IMG/VR virus record: IMGVR_UViG_3300031673_000488
Location: 1 to 23,731 of that record
Strand: one strand, 5' to 3'
Source: a virus
DNA: 23,731 nt
Positions 1-13,666 of the stretch are shown here, piece after piece. How positions within the stretch are numbered: the first letter of the stretch is position 1; every line of letters starts with the position of its first letter. A program made the translations under genes and the position numbers. The notes under the pieces were generated by a model. The model was given only the letters and a program-made list of their open reading frames with translations, was not told where the DNA came from and ran no database searches.

Positions 1-666
1 AGCGGCGGATTTGTGGCCACGTTCCGCTGGGGAGACTACCGGTACATGCCTGCTCAGTATGTGGATTGGCTACATACGTTCAACCCGGCGTGGGCGGCGA
101 CCATGGATTACTGCTGCGAGCCGGAGATCGCTGGCAGCGAGGGCATTGTGCGGGAGCGACAGGAGCGAACGTCAGCCATGGCCTCCCACTTCTGGCGAGA
201 GTACCGGGATACGCCTTGGAGCTGGGTGCCCACGGTGCAGGGCTGGGAGGTCGCTGACTATCGCTGGCATGCGCGCGAGCTGCGGCCCCTGATACAGGAG
301 ATGGCCCAGCGCTACGGCCTAGAGACTGCATTCCGGGTCGGGATCGGCACGCTTTGCCGGCGGGCCAGCGCGGAGATGGTGCAACGGGTGGTGAGGGCAG
401 TTGCTGAGGAACTGCCTGGCATTCCTCTGCATCTGTGGGGGGTCAAGTTGGCGGTATTGCGTTCAGGGTATCTGGCGGGAGTGGTAAGCGTCGATAGTGC
501 GGCTTGGAATGGTCAGTTTGGGCGCGATATTGAGAAACGCCGCCAATCAGGACTCACTGAACGGCAATGGTATTACTGCATCGCTCTGCCCACGTATCTG
601 GCCAAGGTCCAGGCGGCTCTGGCCACACCAAAACAGCCAGCCCTGCCGGGCCTTGAGAGGATGTGA
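1..666 (+). CDS. dpdA: DpdA-like DNA-guanine transglycosylase (7-deazapurine DNA modification), 5'-truncated
   Basis: The frame is open from base 1 and starts mid-gene with SGGF, which matches the end of the DSGGF active-site motif of tRNA-guanine transglycosylases, so GTG 13 is probably internal. Numbering from GTG 13, I see MDYCCEPE (31-38), VGIGTLCRR (109-117), HLWGVK (140-145) and VSVDSAAWN (158-166). The last should place the catalytic nucleophile at D161. These motifs fit the phage DpdA branch of the TGT superfamily, which exchanges guanine in DNA for a preQ0-type 7-deazaguanine; such bases protect phage DNA from restriction. No CxCxxC zinc cluster is visible in the part present. It ends with TGA directly before the next gene. 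Family assignment is from remembered motifs, and the actual base made cannot be inferred. preQ0 synthesis genes, if carried, lie outside the window. Confidence 0.78.
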   Translation, partial: SGGFVATFRWGDYRYMPAQYVDWLHTFNPAWAATMDYCCEPEIAGSEGIVRERQERTSAMASHFWREYRDTPWSWVPTVQGWEVADYRWHARELRPLIQEMAQRYGLETAFRVGIGTLCRRASAEMVQRVVRAVAEELPGIPLHLWGVKLAVLRSGYLAGVVSVDSAAWNGQFGRDIEKRRQSGLTERQWYYCIALPTYLAKVQAALATPKQPALPGLERM

Positions 667-668
667 GT

Positions 669-1169
669 ATGGCAAAAGAGTTGTACGCCGAAGAGCTAGG
701 CCACTATTGGCAGACGTCGCAGACATCGCCCGATACCTGGATCGAGAAGGCGCGGCGCGAGATTGCCAGTGTCGGCGGCGCCGTTACACTGGACGCTTTC
801 GGCAGTGAGCCACTCAGCGGGCGGGCTGCTTTCGTCCTAGAGTTCACGATCGCGGGCGACCGCTTCCGGCTGACGTGGCCGGTGCTACGCTCCAAGTCGG
901 GGCGCGAGAGGGCGGCGCGCATCCAGGCGGCCACGCTACTATACCATGATGTCAAGGCGCGGTGCCTGAGCGCAAAGGTTCTGGGCGCCCGCAAGGCGTT
1001 TTTCAGTTACGTGCTGCTGCCTGACGGCCGGGCAGCTGGTGATGCTGCAACGCCCGACGTAGCGCGGCTGTTGCCTGCGATGTTCGGGCCGCAGGTGCCA
1101 GCACTGCCGCCGGGCGTGGTGGATGGAGAGGTCGTTGATGACCACGGAAGAGACAGAGGAAACCACTGA
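669..1169 (+). CDS. Phage protein of unknown function
   Basis: A 166-aa protein that I do not recognise by domain. ATG 669 is preferred over the in-frame GTG 663 because GAGAGG (about 655-660) sits 8 bases upstream of the ATG. The N-terminal half has an aromatic and acidic start (LYAEELGHYWQ) and a beta-type stretch around FVLEFTIAGDRFRLTWPVL (about 55-73). It continues with a basic helical part (SKSGRERAARIQAATLLYHDVKAR, described from about residue 75) and an acidic tail. It follows the DpdA-like gene by two bases and overlaps the next ORF by about 32 bases, so it belongs to the same transcription unit. A DNA-binding or replication accessory role is possible from the basic helix, but this is a guess. 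Confidence 0.75.
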   Translation: MAKELYAEELGHYWQTSQTSPDTWIEKARREIASVGGAVTLDAFGSEPLSGRAAFVLEFTIAGDRFRLTWPVLRSKSGRERAARIQAATLLYHDVKARCLSAKVLGARKAFFSYVLLPDGRAAGDAATPDVARLLPAMFGPQVPALPPGVVDGEVVDDHGRDRGNH

Positions 1170-1422
1170 GCTCTGCCCAGGCCGCGAACCTGTCGGCGGT
1201 CGGCGCTACTGCTACGAGGGCTGCCCCGACTTTTCACGGGTACAGTCTTACTATGGTCTCGGCTGCCCGTCACATCTGCGGATGTGTGACATCTGCGGGC
1301 AGAAGGTCGTCTGCCCGTGCCATGTGCCGGAGAAGCGGTCGCCGGACTGGCATGCGAGGTGGCTGGCCTGGATCGAGCAGACCCGCACCCTGCCGGTGCT
1401 GAGGCCGGCGGTGCGACGGTGA
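1138..1422 (+). CDS. Small Cys-rich, probably zinc-binding protein
   Basis: A 94-aa protein with an acidic Thr/Glu start followed by eight cysteines (residues 13, 25, 29, 43, 50, 53, 59, 61) and H62. C50-x2-C53 and C59-x-C61-H62 look like a zinc knuckle or ribbon. ATG 1138 is chosen over ATG 1123 because GGAGAGG (1125-1131) gives a good ribosome-binding site. It overlaps the 3' end of the preceding gene. Its TGA (1420-1422) is in the same frame as the following nuclease, with only four sense codons between this stop and the nuclease's CTG, so stop readthrough would create a zinc-binding domain fused to a nuclease. Function unknown; nucleic acid binding is the likeliest role. Confidence 0.7.
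   Translation: MTTEETEETTELCPGREPVGGRRYCYEGCPDFSRVQSYYGLGCPSHLRMCDICGQKVVCPCHVPEKRSPDWHARWLAWIEQTRTLPVLRPAVRR
1396..1413 (+). repeat. Short direct repeat, copy 1 (flanks nuclease)
   Basis: GTGCTGAGGCCG at 1396-1407 recurs exactly at 1714-1725, and both copies are followed within a few bases by GCGGTG. Copy 1 encodes VLRP near the C-terminus of the Cys-rich protein. The two copies bracket the nuclease gene, suggesting duplication or cassette insertion. Confidence 0.5.
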
Positions 1423-1434
1423 GGCGGTCAACTA

Positions 1435-1454
1435 CTGTCGCCTAAAGGCGACAG
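1435..1454 (+). other. Perfect hairpin at the nuclease 5' end
   Basis: CTGTCGCC (1435-1442) and GGCGACAG (1447-1454) are exact reverse complements around loop TAAA (1443-1446). The loop contains the TAA that closes the GTG 1419 reading frame, and the 5' arm begins at the only candidate CTG start of the nuclease. No T-run follows, so it is not a typical intrinsic terminator. A role in translation initiation or recoding is inferred only from position. Confidence 0.6.
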
Positions 1455-1698
1455 CAACCAGCGCGAGATCGTCGAGGCGCTGCGCCAGATCGGCGCCCAG
1501 GTCCAACTGCTGCACCGCGTGGGCGAGGGATGCCCTGACCTGCTGGTGGCCAGGGCTGGCGTCAACTACCTGCTCGAGGTCAAGATGCCGGGCGCGGAAC
1601 TCACGAGCGACGAGTGGCGCTGGCATATGCGGTGGCCGGGATGGGTGCGGACGGTGCGCACTGTGGACGAGGCGCTGAGGGCCATCGGGGCCCTGTGA
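1435..1698 (+). CDS. PD-(D/E)XK / VRR-NUC-like small nuclease, start codon non-canonical
   Basis: Frame translation gives an 87-residue protein if read from CTG 1435. It has helix NQREIVEALRQIG (8-20, with E11), then GEGCPDLLV (30-38, D35) and YLLEVK (45-50, E48, K50). This E...GxPD...ExK pattern is the catalytic core of VRR-NUC/Holliday-resolvase-like PD-(D/E)XK nucleases, whose phage forms of 80-110 aa cut structured DNA. No ATG, GTG or TTG lies in frame between the upstream stop at 1420 and the first helix; the first is GTG 1519, which would lose helix 1. A GTG at 1419 begins another frame (MRRSTTVA) that stops at TAA 1443-1445. Alternatives are a CTG start, recoding, TGA readthrough, or a one-base frameshift mutation or sequence error. 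Domain call fairly sure; start unsure. Confidence 0.66.
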   Translation: MSPKGDSNQREIVEALRQIGAQVQLLHRVGEGCPDLLVARAGVNYLLEVKMPGAELTSDEWRWHMRWPGWVRTVRTVDEALRAIGAL

Positions 1699-2031: not shown

Positions 2032-2097
2032 AATCTGAAGCGGTTCCGGGGAACATCCGCCCGGCGGCCTCTCACACGAGGGGCTGCCGGGCTTTTT
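2032..2097 (+). ncRNA. Candidate short structured transcript or attenuated leader upstream of terminase
   Basis: The interval from the predicted start to the T-tract is about 65 nt and holds no credible ORF. It contains hairpin GTTCC-GG-GGAAC (2043-2054). GCGGAT (2026-2031) and ATCCGC (2055-2060) are exact complements that could enclose it if transcription starts slightly upstream. ATCCGC shares 2059-2060 with the base of the terminator stem, so the two structures could compete. It is either a small phage RNA or a leader needing antitermination for terminase expression. Confidence 0.5.
2059..2097 (+). terminator. Rho-independent terminator
   Basis: GCCCGGCGGCCTCT (2059-2072) pairs with GAGGGGCTGCCGGGC (2078-2092) with a few wobbles or mismatches, loop about CACAC, followed by TTTTT (2093-2097). 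The GC-rich stem plus U-tract is typical. It lies between a strong promoter and the small terminase gene. Confidence 0.82.
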
Positions 2098-2119
2098 GCG
2101 TTCACGAGGTGGCGGGTGC

Positions 2120-2689
2120 GTGGTTCTGTCAGCGAAACGGCGGGTGTTCATCGAGGAGTATATCCGTTGCGGCTGGAACGCAACGGAGGCAGCTCGCCGT
2201 GCTGGCTACAGATATCCACGCCAACAGGGACAACGTTTGTTGACTTTTGTTGACATTCAGACCGCCATCAATGCCCGCATCGCTGAGCGCGCCATGGGTG
2301 CTGATGAAGTGCTGGACCGCCTAGCAGAGCATGCCCGTGGCAGCATGGCCGACTTTCTCGACATCCGCAACAACTGGGTCACTCTGGATATTGATAGGGC
2401 CAAGCAAGCGGGCGTCTTGCATCTGATCAAGAAGTTCCGGCAGACCAGAGAGGGCACTGAGGTCCAACTGTATGATGCTCAGGGGGCGCTGGAGCTTTTG
2501 GGTAAGCACCTCGGCCTCTTCAAAGATACTATCGACCTGCGGAGTGTTGACCTAACACGGCTAACCGATGAACAACTTGAGCGTATCGCCAACGGCGAGG
2601 ATCCCGCTAGCGTCCTTGCAGCTACGCGCCAGAGCGGAGCAGGAGAGGCGCCGCCGGCAGAGCCCAGCGGTGAGAGTCCCGCCGTTTGA
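2120..2689 (+). CDS. terS: Terminase small subunit
   Basis: The DNA-recognition subunit of the packaging motor, which binds the pac or cos site and loads the large subunit. The N-terminus LSAKRRVFIEEYI, then NATEAARRAGY and LLTFVDIQTAI, is the Terminase_2-type helix-turn-helix. A helical central region and a Pro/Glu/Ser-rich tail follow. The total is 189 aa from GTG 2120. An earlier in-frame TTG at 2096 lies in the terminator T-tract and is unlikely. GAGGTGG at about 2106-2112 may serve as ribosome-binding site. Its 3' end overlaps the start of the large terminase in another frame. It is the first gene after the promoter and terminator. Confidence 0.87.
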   Translation: MVLSAKRRVFIEEYIRCGWNATEAARRAGYRYPRQQGQRLLTFVDIQTAINARIAERAMGADEVLDRLAEHARGSMADFLDIRNNWVTLDIDRAKQAGVLHLIKKFRQTREGTEVQLYDAQGALELLGKHLGLFKDTIDLRSVDLTRLTDEQLERIANGEDPASVLAATRQSGAGEAPPAEPSGESPAV

Positions 2690-4025
2690 CGCCTGGCTCC
2701 CGCAGGTCACGCCGGCCTGGCGCTGGGATTGGCCGTACCTGGCCTATATGCGACAGTACCTTGACAAGATAACATCGGGCGAACTGGATCGGCTGATGCT
2801 CTTCCTGCCACCCCGGCATGGCAAGACCGAGATGGTCACGGTGCGCTACCCAGTCTGGCGGCTGGAGGGTGAGCCGGGGCTGCGTGTGATCGTCGGCGCG
2901 TACAACCAACTGCTCGCCAACAAGTTCTCGCGCAAGGCCCGTCGCATTGCCGAAAGCCGGTTTGCTCTCGCCAGTGACCGGGCAGCGGTCGAGGATTGGG
3001 AGACGGCAGGCGGCGGCGGTTTTCGCGCCATCGGCGTGGGCGCCGGAATCACGGGCCAAGGCGGGCACCTAGTCGTCATCGATGACCCGGTGAAGAACCG
3101 CAAAGAGGCCGAGAGCGCAGTCTACCGCGATTGGGTGTGGGACTGGTACACGGATGATCTCTATACCCGGCTGGAGCCGGGCGCGGCCATCATCCTTATC
3201 ATGACGCGCTGGCACCAGGATGACCTGGCGGGCCGCATCCTGGCATCAGAGGATGGGCCGAATTGGACCGTTGTGAGTCTGCCGGCAGAGGCGGAAAAGG
3301 GTGATCCCCTGGATCGGGGCCTGGGCGAGGCACTGTGCCCGGCGCGCTACCCGGTGCCAACATTGGCTCGCATCAGAAGCGTTCTGGGCGGCCACAGCTA
3401 CGCGGCTCTTTACCAGCAGAAGCCATACCCGCCGGAGGGCGCGCTGGCCCGGCGCGAGTGGTTCCCCATCGTGGGCGCGGCGCCGGCGGAGGGTGCCCGG
3501 CTGCGGTTCTGGGAGTTCGCAGCCACAGAGAAGAGCGCCAAGGCATCAGACCCCGACTGGATGGTCGGCACACGCATGGTCATGGGCCATGGGCTTTGGT
3601 ACATCGAAGATGTAATCCGCGCCCGCATTGGTCCAGGCGCGGTCGAAGCTCTCGTGAAACAGACAGCGGCCCTCGATGGCTGGTCAATAGCCATCAGTTT
3701 CGAGCAAGAGCCAGCTGCGGCCGGCAAGCTATTCGCCGCCGCGATGATCAAGGCCCTGGCAGGCTACAACGTCCATGCCGAGCCCGCCACCGGCGACAAG
3801 GTGACGCGCGCCTTGCCCTTCTTCGCGCAGGCTGAGGCCGGCAATGTGCGGTTGCTCCATGGGCCCTGGAACGAAGCATGGCTACAGGAAATCACAGCCT
3901 TCCCGCTGGGCGGGCATGACGACCAGGTGGATAGTGCCAGCGGCGCTTTCAACGAACTGACGCGGCCACCGGAGATCAACGAAATTGTGATCTGGGATGA
4001 TCGGGTAGAGATATCGCCGTTCTAG
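2568..4025 (+). CDS. terL: Terminase large subunit (ATPase-nuclease)
   Basis: The motor that translocates and cuts phage DNA at the portal. The 485 aa include Walker A-type PPRHGKTE (81-88), Walker B HLVVIDDP (167-174) and coupling motif MTRWH (212-216) in the ATPase. The RNase H-like nuclease has acidic sites at WEFAA (315-319), EQEP (379-382) and HDDQVDS (450-456). In relatives I recall, the first site is usually WD; here it is E316, a conservative but unusual change. ATG 2568 keeps a basic N-terminus (LRARAEQERRRR, 18-30) but overlaps terS by 122 bases and has a weak ribosome-binding site. GTG 2670 or TTG 2616 are alternative starts. Confidence 0.93.
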   Translation: MNNLSVSPTARIPLASLQLRARAEQERRRRQSPAVRVPPFDAWLPQVTPAWRWDWPYLAYMRQYLDKITSGELDRLMLFLPPRHGKTEMVTVRYPVWRLEGEPGLRVIVGAYNQLLANKFSRKARRIAESRFALASDRAAVEDWETAGGGGFRAIGVGAGITGQGGHLVVIDDPVKNRKEAESAVYRDWVWDWYTDDLYTRLEPGAAIILIMTRWHQDDLAGRILASEDGPNWTVVSLPAEAEKGDPLDRGLGEALCPARYPVPTLARIRSVLGGHSYAALYQQKPYPPEGALARREWFPIVGAAPAEGARLRFWEFAATEKSAKASDPDWMVGTRMVMGHGLWYIEDVIRARIGPGAVEALVKQTAALDGWSIAISFEQEPAAAGKLFAAAMIKALAGYNVHAEPATGDKVTRALPFFAQAEAGNVRLLHGPWNEAWLQEITAFPLGGHDDQVDSASGAFNELTRPPEINEIVIWDDRVEISPF

Positions 4026-8947: not shown

Positions 8948-9282
8948 TGCCATGGACCGTTGAAGACGTAGACAAGCATAAGGCCGATTTGAGCGACAAG
9001 CAGAAAGAGCAGTGGGTGAAGGTCGCCAACAGCGCGCTGGCAGCCTGCGAGGCCAAGGACGGCGCTGACTGCGACGCGCATGCTATCAGGATCGCCAATG
9101 CGGCAGTTGAGGAGGCAGCCGTACCCAAGAGCCTGCGCGATCGGTTGCGGGAACTGCTGGAGTCGGCGCAGGCGTTGCTGACCGGCGGGCTGGATGCTGA
9201 GTTGCCGGCCATCGAGGCTACAGAGGCGGCTCAGGTAGAACTTGTAGAGTGCGTGCCAATCCCCCGGGAGGTCGAAGCGTGA
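8947..9282 (+). CDS. Small head-region protein (PWTxxDVxxHK family)
   Basis: A 111-aa protein beginning [34 protein letters not shown], followed by [14 protein letters not shown] recall this N-terminal module as a conserved segment found alone or attached to phage head protease or scaffold proteins, resembling ChaB-type small domains. The C-terminal half is a helical acidic tail (residues about 60-111). It begins at ATG 8947 overlapping the previous stop, and its own TGA overlaps the GTG of the HNH gene. If it was once joined to the protease-scaffold downstream, the HNH gene now separates them. The role is not established. Confidence 0.72.
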
Positions 9283-9800
9283 CCGCTGAGTGGGAAGGCC
9301 GGTTCTGGGCGAAGGTGAACAAAACTGCCCTTGGCGGCTGCTGGATGTGGACTGCCGCGCATGATTCCGATGGCTATGGCTGGTTCAAACTGGCTGGCCG
9401 GCAGGTGCTGGCCCATAGGCTTTCATACCAGATGAGTACAGGCATCCAACCTGGATGGCTCATGGTGCTGCATTCTTGCGACAACCCGGCTTGTGTCAAT
9501 CCGGCACATCTCTTTCTGGGTACGGGCCAGGATAACTCTGCTGATATGTGTGCGAAGGGCAGGCAAGCAAGGGGCGACCGACATGGCACTCACCTCCACC
9601 CCGAAAGCGTACTCAGGGGCGAGCGCAACCGTGGCGGCGGCAAGTTGACAGAGGGGCAGGTTCGGAGCATCCGGGCGCAATACGCGGCAGGCAGTGCTAC
9701 TCAAGTCGCTCTGGCCGAGCGGTTCGGCGTCAGCCAAGGCTTGATAAGCGCAATCATACGGCGTGCCTCATGGGGGCACGTGAGGGAGGTTGCGGCATGA
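9279..9800 (+). CDS. HNH endonuclease with C-terminal helix-turn-helix
   Basis: A 173-aa protein with an HNH_3-type core: [11 protein letters not shown] (45-55), [19 protein letters not shown] (63-81; candidate residues H65, N75, H78) and [12 protein letters not shown]-terminal HTH (about 122-168; [33 protein letters not shown]) should direct DNA binding. This is the form of free-standing phage homing-type endonucleases that cut one strand or both at a conserved site and spread into related phages. GTG 9279 has GGGAGG (about 9265-9270) upstream. Its end overlaps the protease ATG (ATGA), so it is well integrated in the head operon. Confidence 0.88.
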
Positions 9801-10732: not shown

Positions 10733-11194
10733 ATGGTAGGACAAGGCCCAGACCCGGACCAGATCACGGCCTACGACGCAACCTATCAGCAAGCGGGCGC
10801 GCAGTGCTCCAGCACCTTCGAGGGGCGCCATGTGAACATCGTCGAGAGCCTGCTGGTGCATCCTCCGCATGCCGACGGCCTGGCCGACCATGGCGACCCG
10901 ATACTGGCCGGCTGGAGCCTGGTCGGCGTGGCGCTCAAGAGTGCAGAGGCTGCGACCGACATCATGCCTATCGACACCGAGGGCATCTGGTATCTCATGG
11001 TCGAGGCGGCCTGGGCCAACATCGACATCGGCGACATGGTTTTCATCGACGCAACGACGGCGGTGGTGAGCGATGACTGGGAAGATGTGCCGTTCGGGCA
11101 TGCTCTAGGCCCAGTCGTCTACGAGAGCACCACGCTCATCGCGGTCAAGGTTCATGCGTTTCAGATTTTGCTACCCTGGTGGCTCTTCCCATGA
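10733..11194 (+). CDS. Capsid decoration-like protein, short paralogue
   Basis: A 153-aa protein with GGAG (10724-10727) before ATG 10733. It is homologous to the N-terminal part of the next gene: CSSTFEGRHV, HGDPIL and IDTEGIWYL here match CSSTYEGRHI, HGDPVL and IDTEGIWFL there. The segment IGDMVFIDATTAVVS resembles the DUF2190-like capsid decoration fold. These proteins sit on the outside of the shell and stabilise it. The end is hydrophobic (FQILLPWWLFP), unusual for a secreted or soluble tip and perhaps a packing surface. Family is inferred from position and motifs. Confidence 0.75.
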   Translation: MVGQGPDPDQITAYDATYQQAGAQCSSTFEGRHVNIVESLLVHPPHADGLADHGDPILAGWSLVGVALKSAEAATDIMPIDTEGIWYLMVEAAWANIDIGDMVFIDATTAVVSDDWEDVPFGHALGPVVYESTTLIAVKVHAFQILLPWWLFP

Positions 11195-11221
11195 GCCACA
11201 CAATAACGAGGAGGTAATGCA

Positions 11222-12280
11222 ATGCCAGCGAGATACCTTTCGACGGGTCACAGTGCTGGGGAGGAATGCTCCAGCACCTATGAGGGGCGGCACATCACCC
11301 TCGAGGAGTCGTATCTGATTCACCCGTACCATGCTGCGGACACTCTCGTGGATCACGGCGATCCGGTGCTGTTCGCGGTGGGTAGTGACTGGATGAATGG
11401 CGTCGGCGTGGCGTTCAACAGCGCAGCGGCGGCCACAGACCTGATCGCCATCGATACTGAGGGCATCTGGTTTCTGAACGTCCTGGGCTGTGTCAGCGAC
11501 GGCACCAACGACGGCGCGGCAAGGGCACTGCATGCGGGCGATCCGGTCTATATCGCCAAGGCTGCCAATCAGGTCAACCAACTGAGTGGCCAAGACAATC
11601 CCGATGAGTGGGTGCCGTTCGGCTACTTGCTGGGTGACGTGGCTGCCTCGACGACCGCGCCTACGCTGGTGGCGGTCAAGGTACACTGGGCGCCCAACTT
11701 CCTGGAGACCATCAACGTTGGTTCATTGACTCTTGTCGGTCAGGCTGTGGTCAGCGATAACCACGACATCCCCATAGCGGTTCAGCGAGCGGTCGGGGAA
11801 GTGCAAGAGTCGTGGGGGCTGGAATACGCCTGGCTGAAGGCGTTTGTCGGTCTCGCCGACCCGCTGCATGTAGATGAGGATATGAGCGGCATCTACATGC
11901 GGCTCGAAGACAACAAGGCAGCGACCGGGGGCGACCTCTATGCCGGACGGTTCCAAACTCATGCCAACAACGCGGCCGGGGTGTGGACGCGCCTCTATGG
12001 TCTGTACGTGGCCATTTCCAATGAGCTGTCCGATACTATCACGGAGTCGTTCGGCATCGCCATCGCCATGGGTGGTGCCGGTTGCGCTCCGGCAACTCAA
12101 GCGGCAATCCAAATCTGCGGTGATGGCACCCTGGGCACGCTCCAGGCATGGTTCGACACGGAGATCGGCCGCGGCGCGGGGCTCAAGGCGAATGTGGCAG
12201 CTGTCGGCAACACGGTCTTTGAGATCCCCATCAACATCGACGGGACGATCTATTGTATCCCGGTTATCGCCTGGGCATAG
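11222..12280 (+). CDS. Capsid decoration-like protein, long paralogue with extra C-terminal domain
   Basis: A 352-aa protein with AGGAGG (about 11209-11214) 7-8 bases before ATG 11222. Residues 1 to about 155 are a paralogue of the upstream 153-aa protein. Residues about 165-352 form an additional Gly/Ala-rich, beta-type domain (IYMRLEDNKAATGGDLYAGRF, LYGLYVAIS, SFGIAIAMGG), likely a head fibre or spike carried by the decoration domain. The pair suggests tandem duplication followed by domain gain or loss. The host-binding or stabilising role of the extra domain is inferred. Confidence 0.77.
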   Translation: MPARYLSTGHSAGEECSSTYEGRHITLEESYLIHPYHAADTLVDHGDPVLFAVGSDWMNGVGVAFNSAAAATDLIAIDTEGIWFLNVLGCVSDGTNDGAARALHAGDPVYIAKAANQVNQLSGQDNPDEWVPFGYLLGDVAASTTAPTLVAVKVHWAPNFLETINVGSLTLVGQAVVSDNHDIPIAVQRAVGEVQESWGLEYAWLKAFVGLADPLHVDEDMSGIYMRLEDNKAATGGDLYAGRFQTHANNAAGVWTRLYGLYVAISNELSDTITESFGIAIAMGGAGCAPATQAAIQICGDGTLGTLQAWFDTEIGRGAGLKANVAAVGNTVFEIPINIDGTIYCIPVIAWA

Positions 12281-12291
12281 GAGCGGAGCAG

Positions 12292-12531
12292 ATGACTGGC
12301 GATAACCTGAAACAGCGAGTGGAGCAATTCAAACGCATGCTAGGAGATTTGGCCTATGAGCGGCTGCAACTGGTCAGGCGCATTGAGGCAATCGACAAAG
12401 ACATCGCCTCGCTCGAAGGCGCTCAGCAGGCCAACAATCTGACGCAAAAGGATCTGAACACAGAGGCAGCAATAGCAACGGCCCAGGCGGAAGCCGCGGC
12501 CAACACCGACAAGGAGGCACCCAATGCCTGA
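12292..12531 (+). CDS. Small coiled-coil head protein
   Basis: A 79-aa protein from ATG 12292, with GGAGCGGAG (12280-12288) as ribosome-binding site; an upstream in-frame TTG 12253 is less likely. Residues about 4-50 are a strong coiled coil (NLKQRVEQFKRMLGDL, YERLQLVRRIEAIDKDIASLEG), followed by an Ala/Glu-rich tail. Overlap of 8 bases with the major capsid start suggests coupling. It may be a capsid assembly accessory or internal scaffold-like protein. No family is recognised. Confidence 0.7.
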   Translation: MTGDNLKQRVEQFKRMLGDLAYERLQLVRRIEAIDKDIASLEGAQQANNLTQKDLNTEAAIATAQAEAAANTDKEAPNA

Positions 12532-13666
12532 GTTTCTGAAACTCATGGAGACCTGGGACGGCTACACGCCCGTTCCCCAGCAGTTCAGCGAGGCGGCCGT
12601 GGGGCGCGCCATGGAGCTGCTGACCAACGCCAAGCGGCTGCCGAACCACCGGCACGAGTACCTGCTGCGTGAGGCGATAACGACCTCGGATTTCCCCAAC
12701 CTGTTCGGCTTCATCGTCGAGCGCGACATCCTGGCGAGATACCGGATCGTCGTGGCCGACTGGCGGACCTACTGCGCGACCGGCACCATGCCCAACTTCA
12801 ACCAGGGCGAGCTCCACAAGGTGCAGGGGCAGGATCAGCGGTTGGACCTCGTAGGCGAAAAGGGCGAATACCTCATCGCCCGCGAGTCCAATGCGCACTA
12901 CCATCGCAAGGTCTACAAGCGGGGGCGACAGTTCGACATCTCCTGGGAGGCGCTGGTCAACGACGTGCTCGACTCCATGCGGAACATCCCCCAGAAGTTC
13001 GCCGATGCCTGTATCCGCACTGAGGCCTTCCAGGTGACCAGCCTGTACGCAGCGGCGGCCGGCCCGAACCCACTGCTGTTTGCTGCGGCACCTGGCGTCC
13101 TGGATGTGGACGGCGCACGCGTTATCAACCTGGGCGTGCTGCCGTTGACCATCCTCAACCTGGAGGCCACGCTGGCACTTATGGGGGCGCAGGTCGACGT
13201 CAACGGCGAGCCTATCGCGGTGCGGGGTATCCATCTCGTTGTCCCGATGCCCTTGGAGTTCACGGCGCGCCAGATCCTCACCAGCGCGACGAAGATGTGG
13301 GTTGACCAAGCCGGTGGCGCGGGTGCAGCGATCCCGTATCCGATGACGAACGTGCTCCCACAGATGGGCATCCAGTTGCACGTGGATCCCTACCTGCAGG
13401 TCGTGGATACCTCGGCGACCAATGACACTACCTGGTACGTGTTCGCCGATCCCAGCCAGGGCGAAGCGATCCACATGGATTTCCTGACCGGGCACGAGGA
13501 GCCGGAAATCTGCATGAAGGCATCGGACAAGGTGAGCACGGCCGGCGTGCCCATCTCCCCCTTTGAGGGTGACTTTGCCACAGACAATGTTTTCTACCGG
13601 GTGCGGCACGTGCTCGGCGGCACTCAAGTCGATCCGCGGTTTGCCTACGCGCACCAGGCACCATGA
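12524..13666 (+). CDS. Major capsid protein (HK97-fold, Mu gpT-like)
   Basis: A 380-aa protein with the best ribosome-binding site in the region (AAGGAGG, 12511-12517, 6 bases before ATG 12524), as expected for the most abundant virion protein. The pattern SDFPNLFGFIVERDILARY, GEYLIARESNAHYHRKVYKRGRQFDISWEALVNDVLD (described from about residues 110-150; written in parts) and the later beta-rich domains match gpT/HK97-type major capsid proteins. Position after protease-scaffold and decoration genes, and before connectors, fits. There is no large N-terminal delta domain, consistent with a separate scaffold. Confidence 0.87.
   Translation: MPEFLKLMETWDGYTPVPQQFSEAAVGRAMELLTNAKRLPNHRHEYLLREAITTSDFPNLFGFIVERDILARYRIVVADWRTYCATGTMPNFNQGELHKVQGQDQRLDLVGEKGEYLIARESNAHYHRKVYKRGRQFDISWEALVNDVLDSMRNIPQKFADACIRTEAFQVTSLYAAAAGPNPLLFAAAPGVLDVDGARVINLGVLPLTILNLEATLALMGAQVDVNGEPIAVRGIHLVVPMPLEFTARQILTSATKMWVDQAGGAGAAIPYPMTNVLPQMGIQLHVDPYLQVVDTSATNDTTWYVFADPSQGEAIHMDFLTGHEEPEICMKASDKVSTAGVPISPFEGDFATDNVFYRVRHVLGGTQVDPRFAYAHQAP

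What the first reader, a model, noticed from the sequence alone, without database searches (positions are those of the whole stretch)
1..666. Phage-linked DpdA-like DNA modification enzyme next to packaging genes
The open 5' end begins with SGGF and the frame carries GIGTLCRR, HLWGVK and VDSAAWN, matching the deazapurine DNA transglycosylase branch of the TGT family. This predicts that the phage genome contains 7-deazaguanine bases, an anti-restriction strategy, in a lineage where it may not be described. The gene lies in an accessory cluster with two unknown proteins and a nuclease that could act on the same DNA.
Basis: partly seen in the sequence, partly recalled or inferred. Interest (0 to 1): 0.72.

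Follow-up and report, generated by a model that had tools for sequence, protein, structure and literature searches.

The report
Truncated phage DpdA-type DNA base-exchange enzyme
The start of this viral fragment carries the cut-off end of a gene for an enzyme that swaps guanine in DNA for a 7-deazaguanine base to evade host defences; the enzyme type is known, but neither this phage fragment nor its nearest relatives can make that base themselves, so it would have to come from the host or from outside.

Summary
Bases 1-666 encode the C-terminal 221 residues of a DpdA protein (Pfam DpdA 56 bits, cut-off 27; PHROG 1279, 75 bits). The gene is cut one codon after the first catalytic Asp: 91 of 91 aligned homologues have Asp just before SGGF. 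The second Asp (D165) is present. A full-length relative (61% identical) folds confidently (pLDDT 90), and its best solved match is 7ui4, the DNA preQ0 insertase DpdA.

The fragment and its three closest phage relatives (50-60 kb records) lack QueC, QueD, FolE and any radical-SAM gene, so this is a 'singleton' dpdA. Measured singletons had no modification (Orion) or traces (7-11). The neighbouring nuclease and 168-aa protein occur in many phages without dpdA and are not its partners.

The clade is distinct, lacks the zinc-type motif, and recurs in Chloroflexota genomes, three of four with QueC, so host-supplied preQ0 is plausible.

One family-level result was not anticipated: 16 of 50 records carry a YhhQ/Vut_1-type preQ0-transporter gene, always within 0.5 kb of dpdA; two more carry an adjacent queC. 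The window shows neither, but its upstream side is missing.

The parts
1..666 (+). dpdA, 3' part (221 aa of about 275); 5' end cut at the contig end, one codon after the expected catalytic Asp
   Evidence: Pfam DpdA 56 bits and phrog_1279 75 bits; invariant residues; fold of 61% identical L011 protein
106..120 (+). DYCCE motif (D36-E40), aligned with the base-recognition Asp region of the family; D36 invariant in 92 sequences
238..243 (+). invariant QG pair (Q80-G81)
340..363 (+). GIGTLCRR motif
430..447 (+). HLWGVK motif
490..510 (+). VDSAAWN motif; D165 (bases 493-495) is the expected nucleophile, aligned with position 249 of archaeosine TGT 1iq8 (sub-threshold profile match)
663..1169 (+). 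168-aa protein of unknown function overlapping the dpdA stop; neighbour, not a dpdA partner
   Evidence: 13 relatives (40-57%) in other viral contigs, none with DpdA within about 3 kb
1123..1422 (+). 99-aa cysteine-rich protein of unknown function; neighbour
1435..1698 (+). small VRR-NUC-type nuclease ORF without an early ATG/GTG/TTG start; neighbour, not a dpdA partner
   Evidence: Pfam VRR_NUC E 0.0016 (below cut-off), phrog_93 E 1.8e-6; 46 relatives, only one with DpdA in the stretch read
2096..2689 (+). terminase small subunit
2568..4025 (+). terminase large subunit; 48-49% identical to proteins in two Chloroflexota genomes

Best explanation
The gene encodes a DpdA: a TGT-fold enzyme that exchanges a guanine in double-stranded phage DNA for a 7-deazaguanine base, most likely preQ0. 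It would use the Asp before SGGF (outside the record) and D165 as its catalytic pair. The phage appears to have no biosynthesis genes of its own, so it most likely draws the base from the host pool (probable Chloroflexota hosts with QueC) or by uptake, and gains protection from restriction enzymes. Shown here: family, active-site conservation, fold of a close relative, absence of preQ0 genes in the record and in its three closest phage relatives, and QueC in three of four Chloroflexota genomes with strong clade matches. Inferred: activity, DNA as target, preQ0 as substrate, host identity, protection.
For: Profiles DpdA and phrog_1279. All catalytic-type columns invariant in 92 sequences, with Asp before SGGF in 91 of 91. 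AlphaFold2 model of the 61% identical L011 protein, pLDDT 90.1, best PDB match 7ui4 'DNA preQ0 insertase DpdA' E 1.5e-9, then TGTs. Family-wide coupling to preQ0 supply: Vut_1/YhhQ-type gene in 16 of 50 records, all within 0.5 kb of dpdA, mostly overlapping or abutting it; queC overlapping or next to dpdA in L038 and L048. Strong clade matches in 4 of 400 Chloroflexota genomes, 3 of the 4 with full-length QueC. TerL 48-49% to Chloroflexota genomes. Clade members sit near DNA methyltransferases and restriction genes.
Against: No QueC, QueD, FolE or radical-SAM gene in the window record or in L011-L013, and no transporter in them. Measured singletons show no modification (Orion) or 0.02% of G (7-11) (PMC6884629). 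The N-terminal part, including one catalytic Asp, is not in the record. The clade lacks the zinc-type H-x2-C-x2-C seen in many relatives. Ardenticatenales MAG G011 carries the gene but shows no QueC (the MAG may be incomplete).
Confidence: 0.68

Rival explanations
1. The gene encodes an intact DpdA-fold protein, but the phage DNA is normally unmodified because no preQ0 is available; the gene is kept for occasional preQ0-rich hosts or for another role.
For: Singleton status; Orion, a dpdA-only mycobacteriophage, has no detectable modification and 7-11 only 0.02% dADG (PMC6884629).
Against: Genomes G316, G391 and G397 that carry clade members encode QueC, whereas the paper reports that Orion's Mycobacterium host has no preQ0 pathway; one third of the wider family has an adjacent transporter.
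Confidence: 0.18
2. The protein exchanges a different base: another 7-deazaguanine derivative or a non-deaza purine, supplied or finished by neighbouring genes such as PP-loop (PAPS reductase-like) ATPases and methyltransferases.
For: The clade is distinct (support 0.999, long stem, no zinc-type motif). PAPS reductase genes lie near dpdA in L012, L119, RHph_TM3_3_3 and a Streptomyces plasmid.
Against: PAPS reductase occurs in only 1 of 49 viral records tested, 48 of them dpdA records; the invariant columns are the same as in the rest of the family.
Confidence: 0.08
3. It is a tRNA-guanine transglycosylase (the PHROG name) that acts on tRNA, not DNA.
For: phrog_1279 is labelled queuine tRNA-ribosyltransferase; the same fold family.
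Against: It matches the DpdA model above its cut-off; the best fold match is the DNA enzyme 7ui4; clade proteins are only about 275 aa and lack the zinc-type motif.
Confidence: 0.06

Closest known systems
Singleton DpdA of mycobacteriophages (UncleHowie, Marshawn, Phrappuccino; Orion in the literature) and of phages phiLM21 and RHph_TM3_3_3
   Same: Same Pfam/PHROG family and same invariant residues; 28-33% identity over most of the fragment. Orion is reported to have dpdA but no preQ0 genes (PMC6884629)
   Different: The window clade lacks the H-x2-C-x2-C motif of the mycobacteriophage proteins and has C-C in place of M-C in the DYxCE motif; phiLM21 has an adjacent Vut_1 transporter gene
Bacterial DpdA of the dpd system (solved structure 7ui4)
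   Same: Best fold match of the L011 relative, E 1.5e-9
   Different: About 14% identity, target chain of 413 residues against about 280, TM-score 0.55 by query length
Phage DpdA with preQ0/G+ pathway (9g, CAjan, Rosebush)
   Same: Enzyme type
   Different: Those phages also encode FolE, QueD, QueE and QueC (PMC6884629); none of these in the window record or in L011-L013
Bacterial and archaeal TGT (4gg9, 1iq8)
   Same: Fold and Asp nucleophile column
   Different: Shorter; no sequence match above threshold; no zinc-type motif

Membership tests
DpdA (PF23859) | Profile score above the curated cut-off | tested here: met
   56.2 bits against 27
DpdA (PF23859) | First catalytic Asp (DSGGF/DCGGF) | tested here: inconclusive
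   The codon lies just outside the record; Asp in 91 of 91 homologues
DpdA (PF23859) | Second catalytic Asp (nucleophile) | tested here: met
   D165, invariant in 92 sequences; aligns with position 249 of 1iq8
DpdA (PF23859) | TGT-type fold | tested here: met
   Tested on the 61% identical L011 protein: pLDDT 90.1, 7ui4 then TGTs
DpdA (PF23859) | Inserts 7-deazaguanine into DNA | not testable with these tools
   Needs enzyme assay or mass spectrometry
Phage 7-deazaguanine system with its own pathway | folE, queD, queE, queC in the phage | tested here: not met
   None in the window record or in L011-L013; the window record is incomplete
Bacterial dpd restriction-modification system | dpdB-dpdK genes with dpdA | not tested
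   No dpd-specific profiles were run; annotated neighbours are phage genes or methyltransferases and helicases
tRNA-guanine transglycosylase | Zinc-binding Cys/His cluster | tested here: not met
   No H/C/S-x2-C-x2-C near the C-terminus in window, L011-L013, L095, L096

The most novel reading that the evidence does not exclude
Singleton DpdA proteins of this family form a salvage version of 7-deazaguanine DNA modification: the phage brings only the insertase plus its own preQ0 importer (a short YhhQ/Vut_1-type gene overlapping or abutting dpdA), or a lone queC, or, as in the window clade, relies on the host's pathway. The published survey found no correlation of YhhQ with any phage group; here all 16 transporter genes lie within 0.5 kb of dpdA.
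Probability: 0.5. Interest if true: 0.6.

Novelty: new member of a known kind. Interest (0 to 1): 0.38.

Why it matters
It extends DpdA to a distinct clade of uncultivated phages and mobile elements without the zinc-type motif, probably of Chloroflexota. It also bears on an open question left by the 2019 survey: where dpdA-only phages get their base. The dpdA-transporter and dpdA-queC pairs in sister phages make this directly testable with cloned two-gene cassettes and nucleoside mass spectrometry.

Tried and rejected
Functional link to the 168-aa protein: 13 relatives, none with DpdA within about 3 kb, so rejected. Functional link to the VRR-NUC ORF: 46 relatives, DpdA seen in one, about 8 kb away, so rejected. 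General link to PAPS reductase, suggested by four loci: only 1 of 49 viral records, so rejected as a general rule. phiLM21 gp26 as a homologue of the 168-aa protein: no similarity; it is a Vut_1 protein instead. Finding the missing upstream part through relatives: the TerL and capsid relatives carry no dpdA in the stretches read, and the close dpdA relatives share no structural genes with the window. Riboswitch near dpdA: no match to any Rfam riboswitch family in ten loci. Orion and Rosebush records were not in the collection, so the Orion comparison rests on the paper.

Full report
What is there. The window is a complete 23,731-base virus record that begins inside a gene. Frame 1-666 (+) reads SGGF...VDSAAWN... 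and ends in TGA, overlapping the next gene. It matches Pfam DpdA (56.2 bits, cut-off 27) and phrog_1279 (75 bits), starting at profile position 47. Against solved chains there is no sequence match above threshold. A profile of ten homologues aligns, below threshold, with archaeosine TGT 1iq8 and puts the window's D165 on position 249 of that chain.

Active site and fold. In an alignment of 92 homologues, the residue before the window's first Ser is Asp in 91 of 91. D36, Q80, G81, G116, C119, R121, H144, G147 and D165 never vary. The missing Asp is therefore expected but not seen. The closest phage relatives are L011, L012 and L013 (57-61%), in otherwise unrelated records of 50-60 kb. The AlphaFold2 model of the full-length L011 protein, made with 61 sequences, has pLDDT 90.1 and pTM 0.88. 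Its best PDB match is 7ui4, the DNA preQ0 insertase DpdA (E 1.5e-9), followed by many TGT entries. The best viral match is a mycobacteriophage protein labelled queuine tRNA-ribosyltransferase.

A distinct clade. The window, L011-L013, L095 (67%, MAG labelled Bacilli) and L096 (51%, Ardenticatenales MAG) form one clade (support 0.999, long stem). It lacks the H-x2-C-x2-C motif that many relatives keep; the three phage relatives have DCGGF where the window has (D)SGGF. Sampling 400 Chloroflexota genomes found strong matches in 4, counting G011 that led to the sample; 399 genomes of the phylum of L095 gave one strong match, the seed itself. The window's TerL is 48-49% identical to proteins in two Chloroflexota genomes. 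The host is therefore probably a chloroflexote, by inference.

Substrate supply. QueC, QueD, FolE and all radical-SAM proteins are absent from the window record and from the L011-L013 records. Hutinet et al. 2019 (PMC6884629) placed such phages in a dpdA-only group. Of these, Orion had no modification (host without preQ0 pathway) and 7-11 only about 0.02% of G as dADG. Two results make it plausible here. First, three of four Chloroflexota genomes with strong matches have a full-length QueC. Second, the wider family is tied to preQ0 supply. Vut_1 (COG1738/YhhQ, the preQ0 transporter family; PMC5372724) is found in 16 of 50 dpdA records, each within 435 bases of dpdA. The two genes usually overlap or abut (the chance that all 16 lie within 500 bases by random placement is about 1e-21). 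The trait changes about 11 times on the tree. The proteins are short and divergent: they pass the Pfam cut-off, but the ten tested fall below the NCBIfam 'queuosine precursor transporter' cut-off. Two further records have queC adjacent to or overlapping dpdA. The window clade itself shows no transporter in L011-L013, and the window's upstream side is missing.

Neighbours. The 168-aa protein has 13 relatives in viral contigs, none near a DpdA. The small VRR-NUC ORF has 46 relatives, one of which shares a stretch with a DpdA about 8 kb away. In L216, the syntenic relative of the window's VRR-terminase-head region, no dpdA is present and a 449-aa methylase-like gene lies between VRR-NUC and TerS (the methylase call is by eye from its DPPYG motif, no profile was run). 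The idea of a dedicated dpdA cluster with the nuclease is therefore not supported; dpdA looks like a movable accessory gene. In other clade members or their close relatives, DNA methyltransferases lie within about 8 kb: L011, L012, L013, L117, L118, L119. No background rate was measured for this.

Verdict. A real DpdA family member, cut at its 5' end; a new clade of a known kind. DNA modification by preQ0-type bases is the most likely function, but neither the substrate source nor the modification has been shown. Most interest lies in the dpdA-transporter pairs of sister phages, which I did not find described in the papers searchable here.

Noticed in passing
L022, L029, L032, L033, L034, L054, L057, L068, L070, L074, L076, L077, L082, L015, L017, L007 (next to dpdA): A short, divergent Vut_1/YhhQ-type membrane protein gene abuts or overlaps dpdA in 16 of 50 dpdA records; no Vut_1 match was found elsewhere in these records.
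   Followed up: yes
L038:5747-6700, L048:2222-2896: queC adjacent to or overlapping dpdA; no QueD, QueE or FolE among the few neighbouring ORFs scanned.
   Followed up: partly
L117, L118, L119 (Chloroflexota genomes): dpdA of the window's kind in islands with very long DUF6094-methyltransferase/helicase proteins, C5 methylases, a type I restriction system (L118) and two PAPS reductase-like genes (L119).
   Followed up: partly
window 1435-1454: Perfect 8-bp hairpin (ctgtcgcc taaa ggcgacag) at the start of the VRR-NUC ORF, whose first ATG, GTG or TTG in frame comes only at 1519.
   Followed up: no
window 9249-9800: HNH endonuclease with HTH domain between the head genes and the protease gene, homing-endonuclease-like.
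   Followed up: no
window 10733-12280 and 12524-13666: Two related-looking genes (153 and 352 aa) before the major capsid gene; the capsid gene has at least 80 relatives in uncultivated viral contigs (45-67% identity), none with dpdA in the stretch read.
   Followed up: partly
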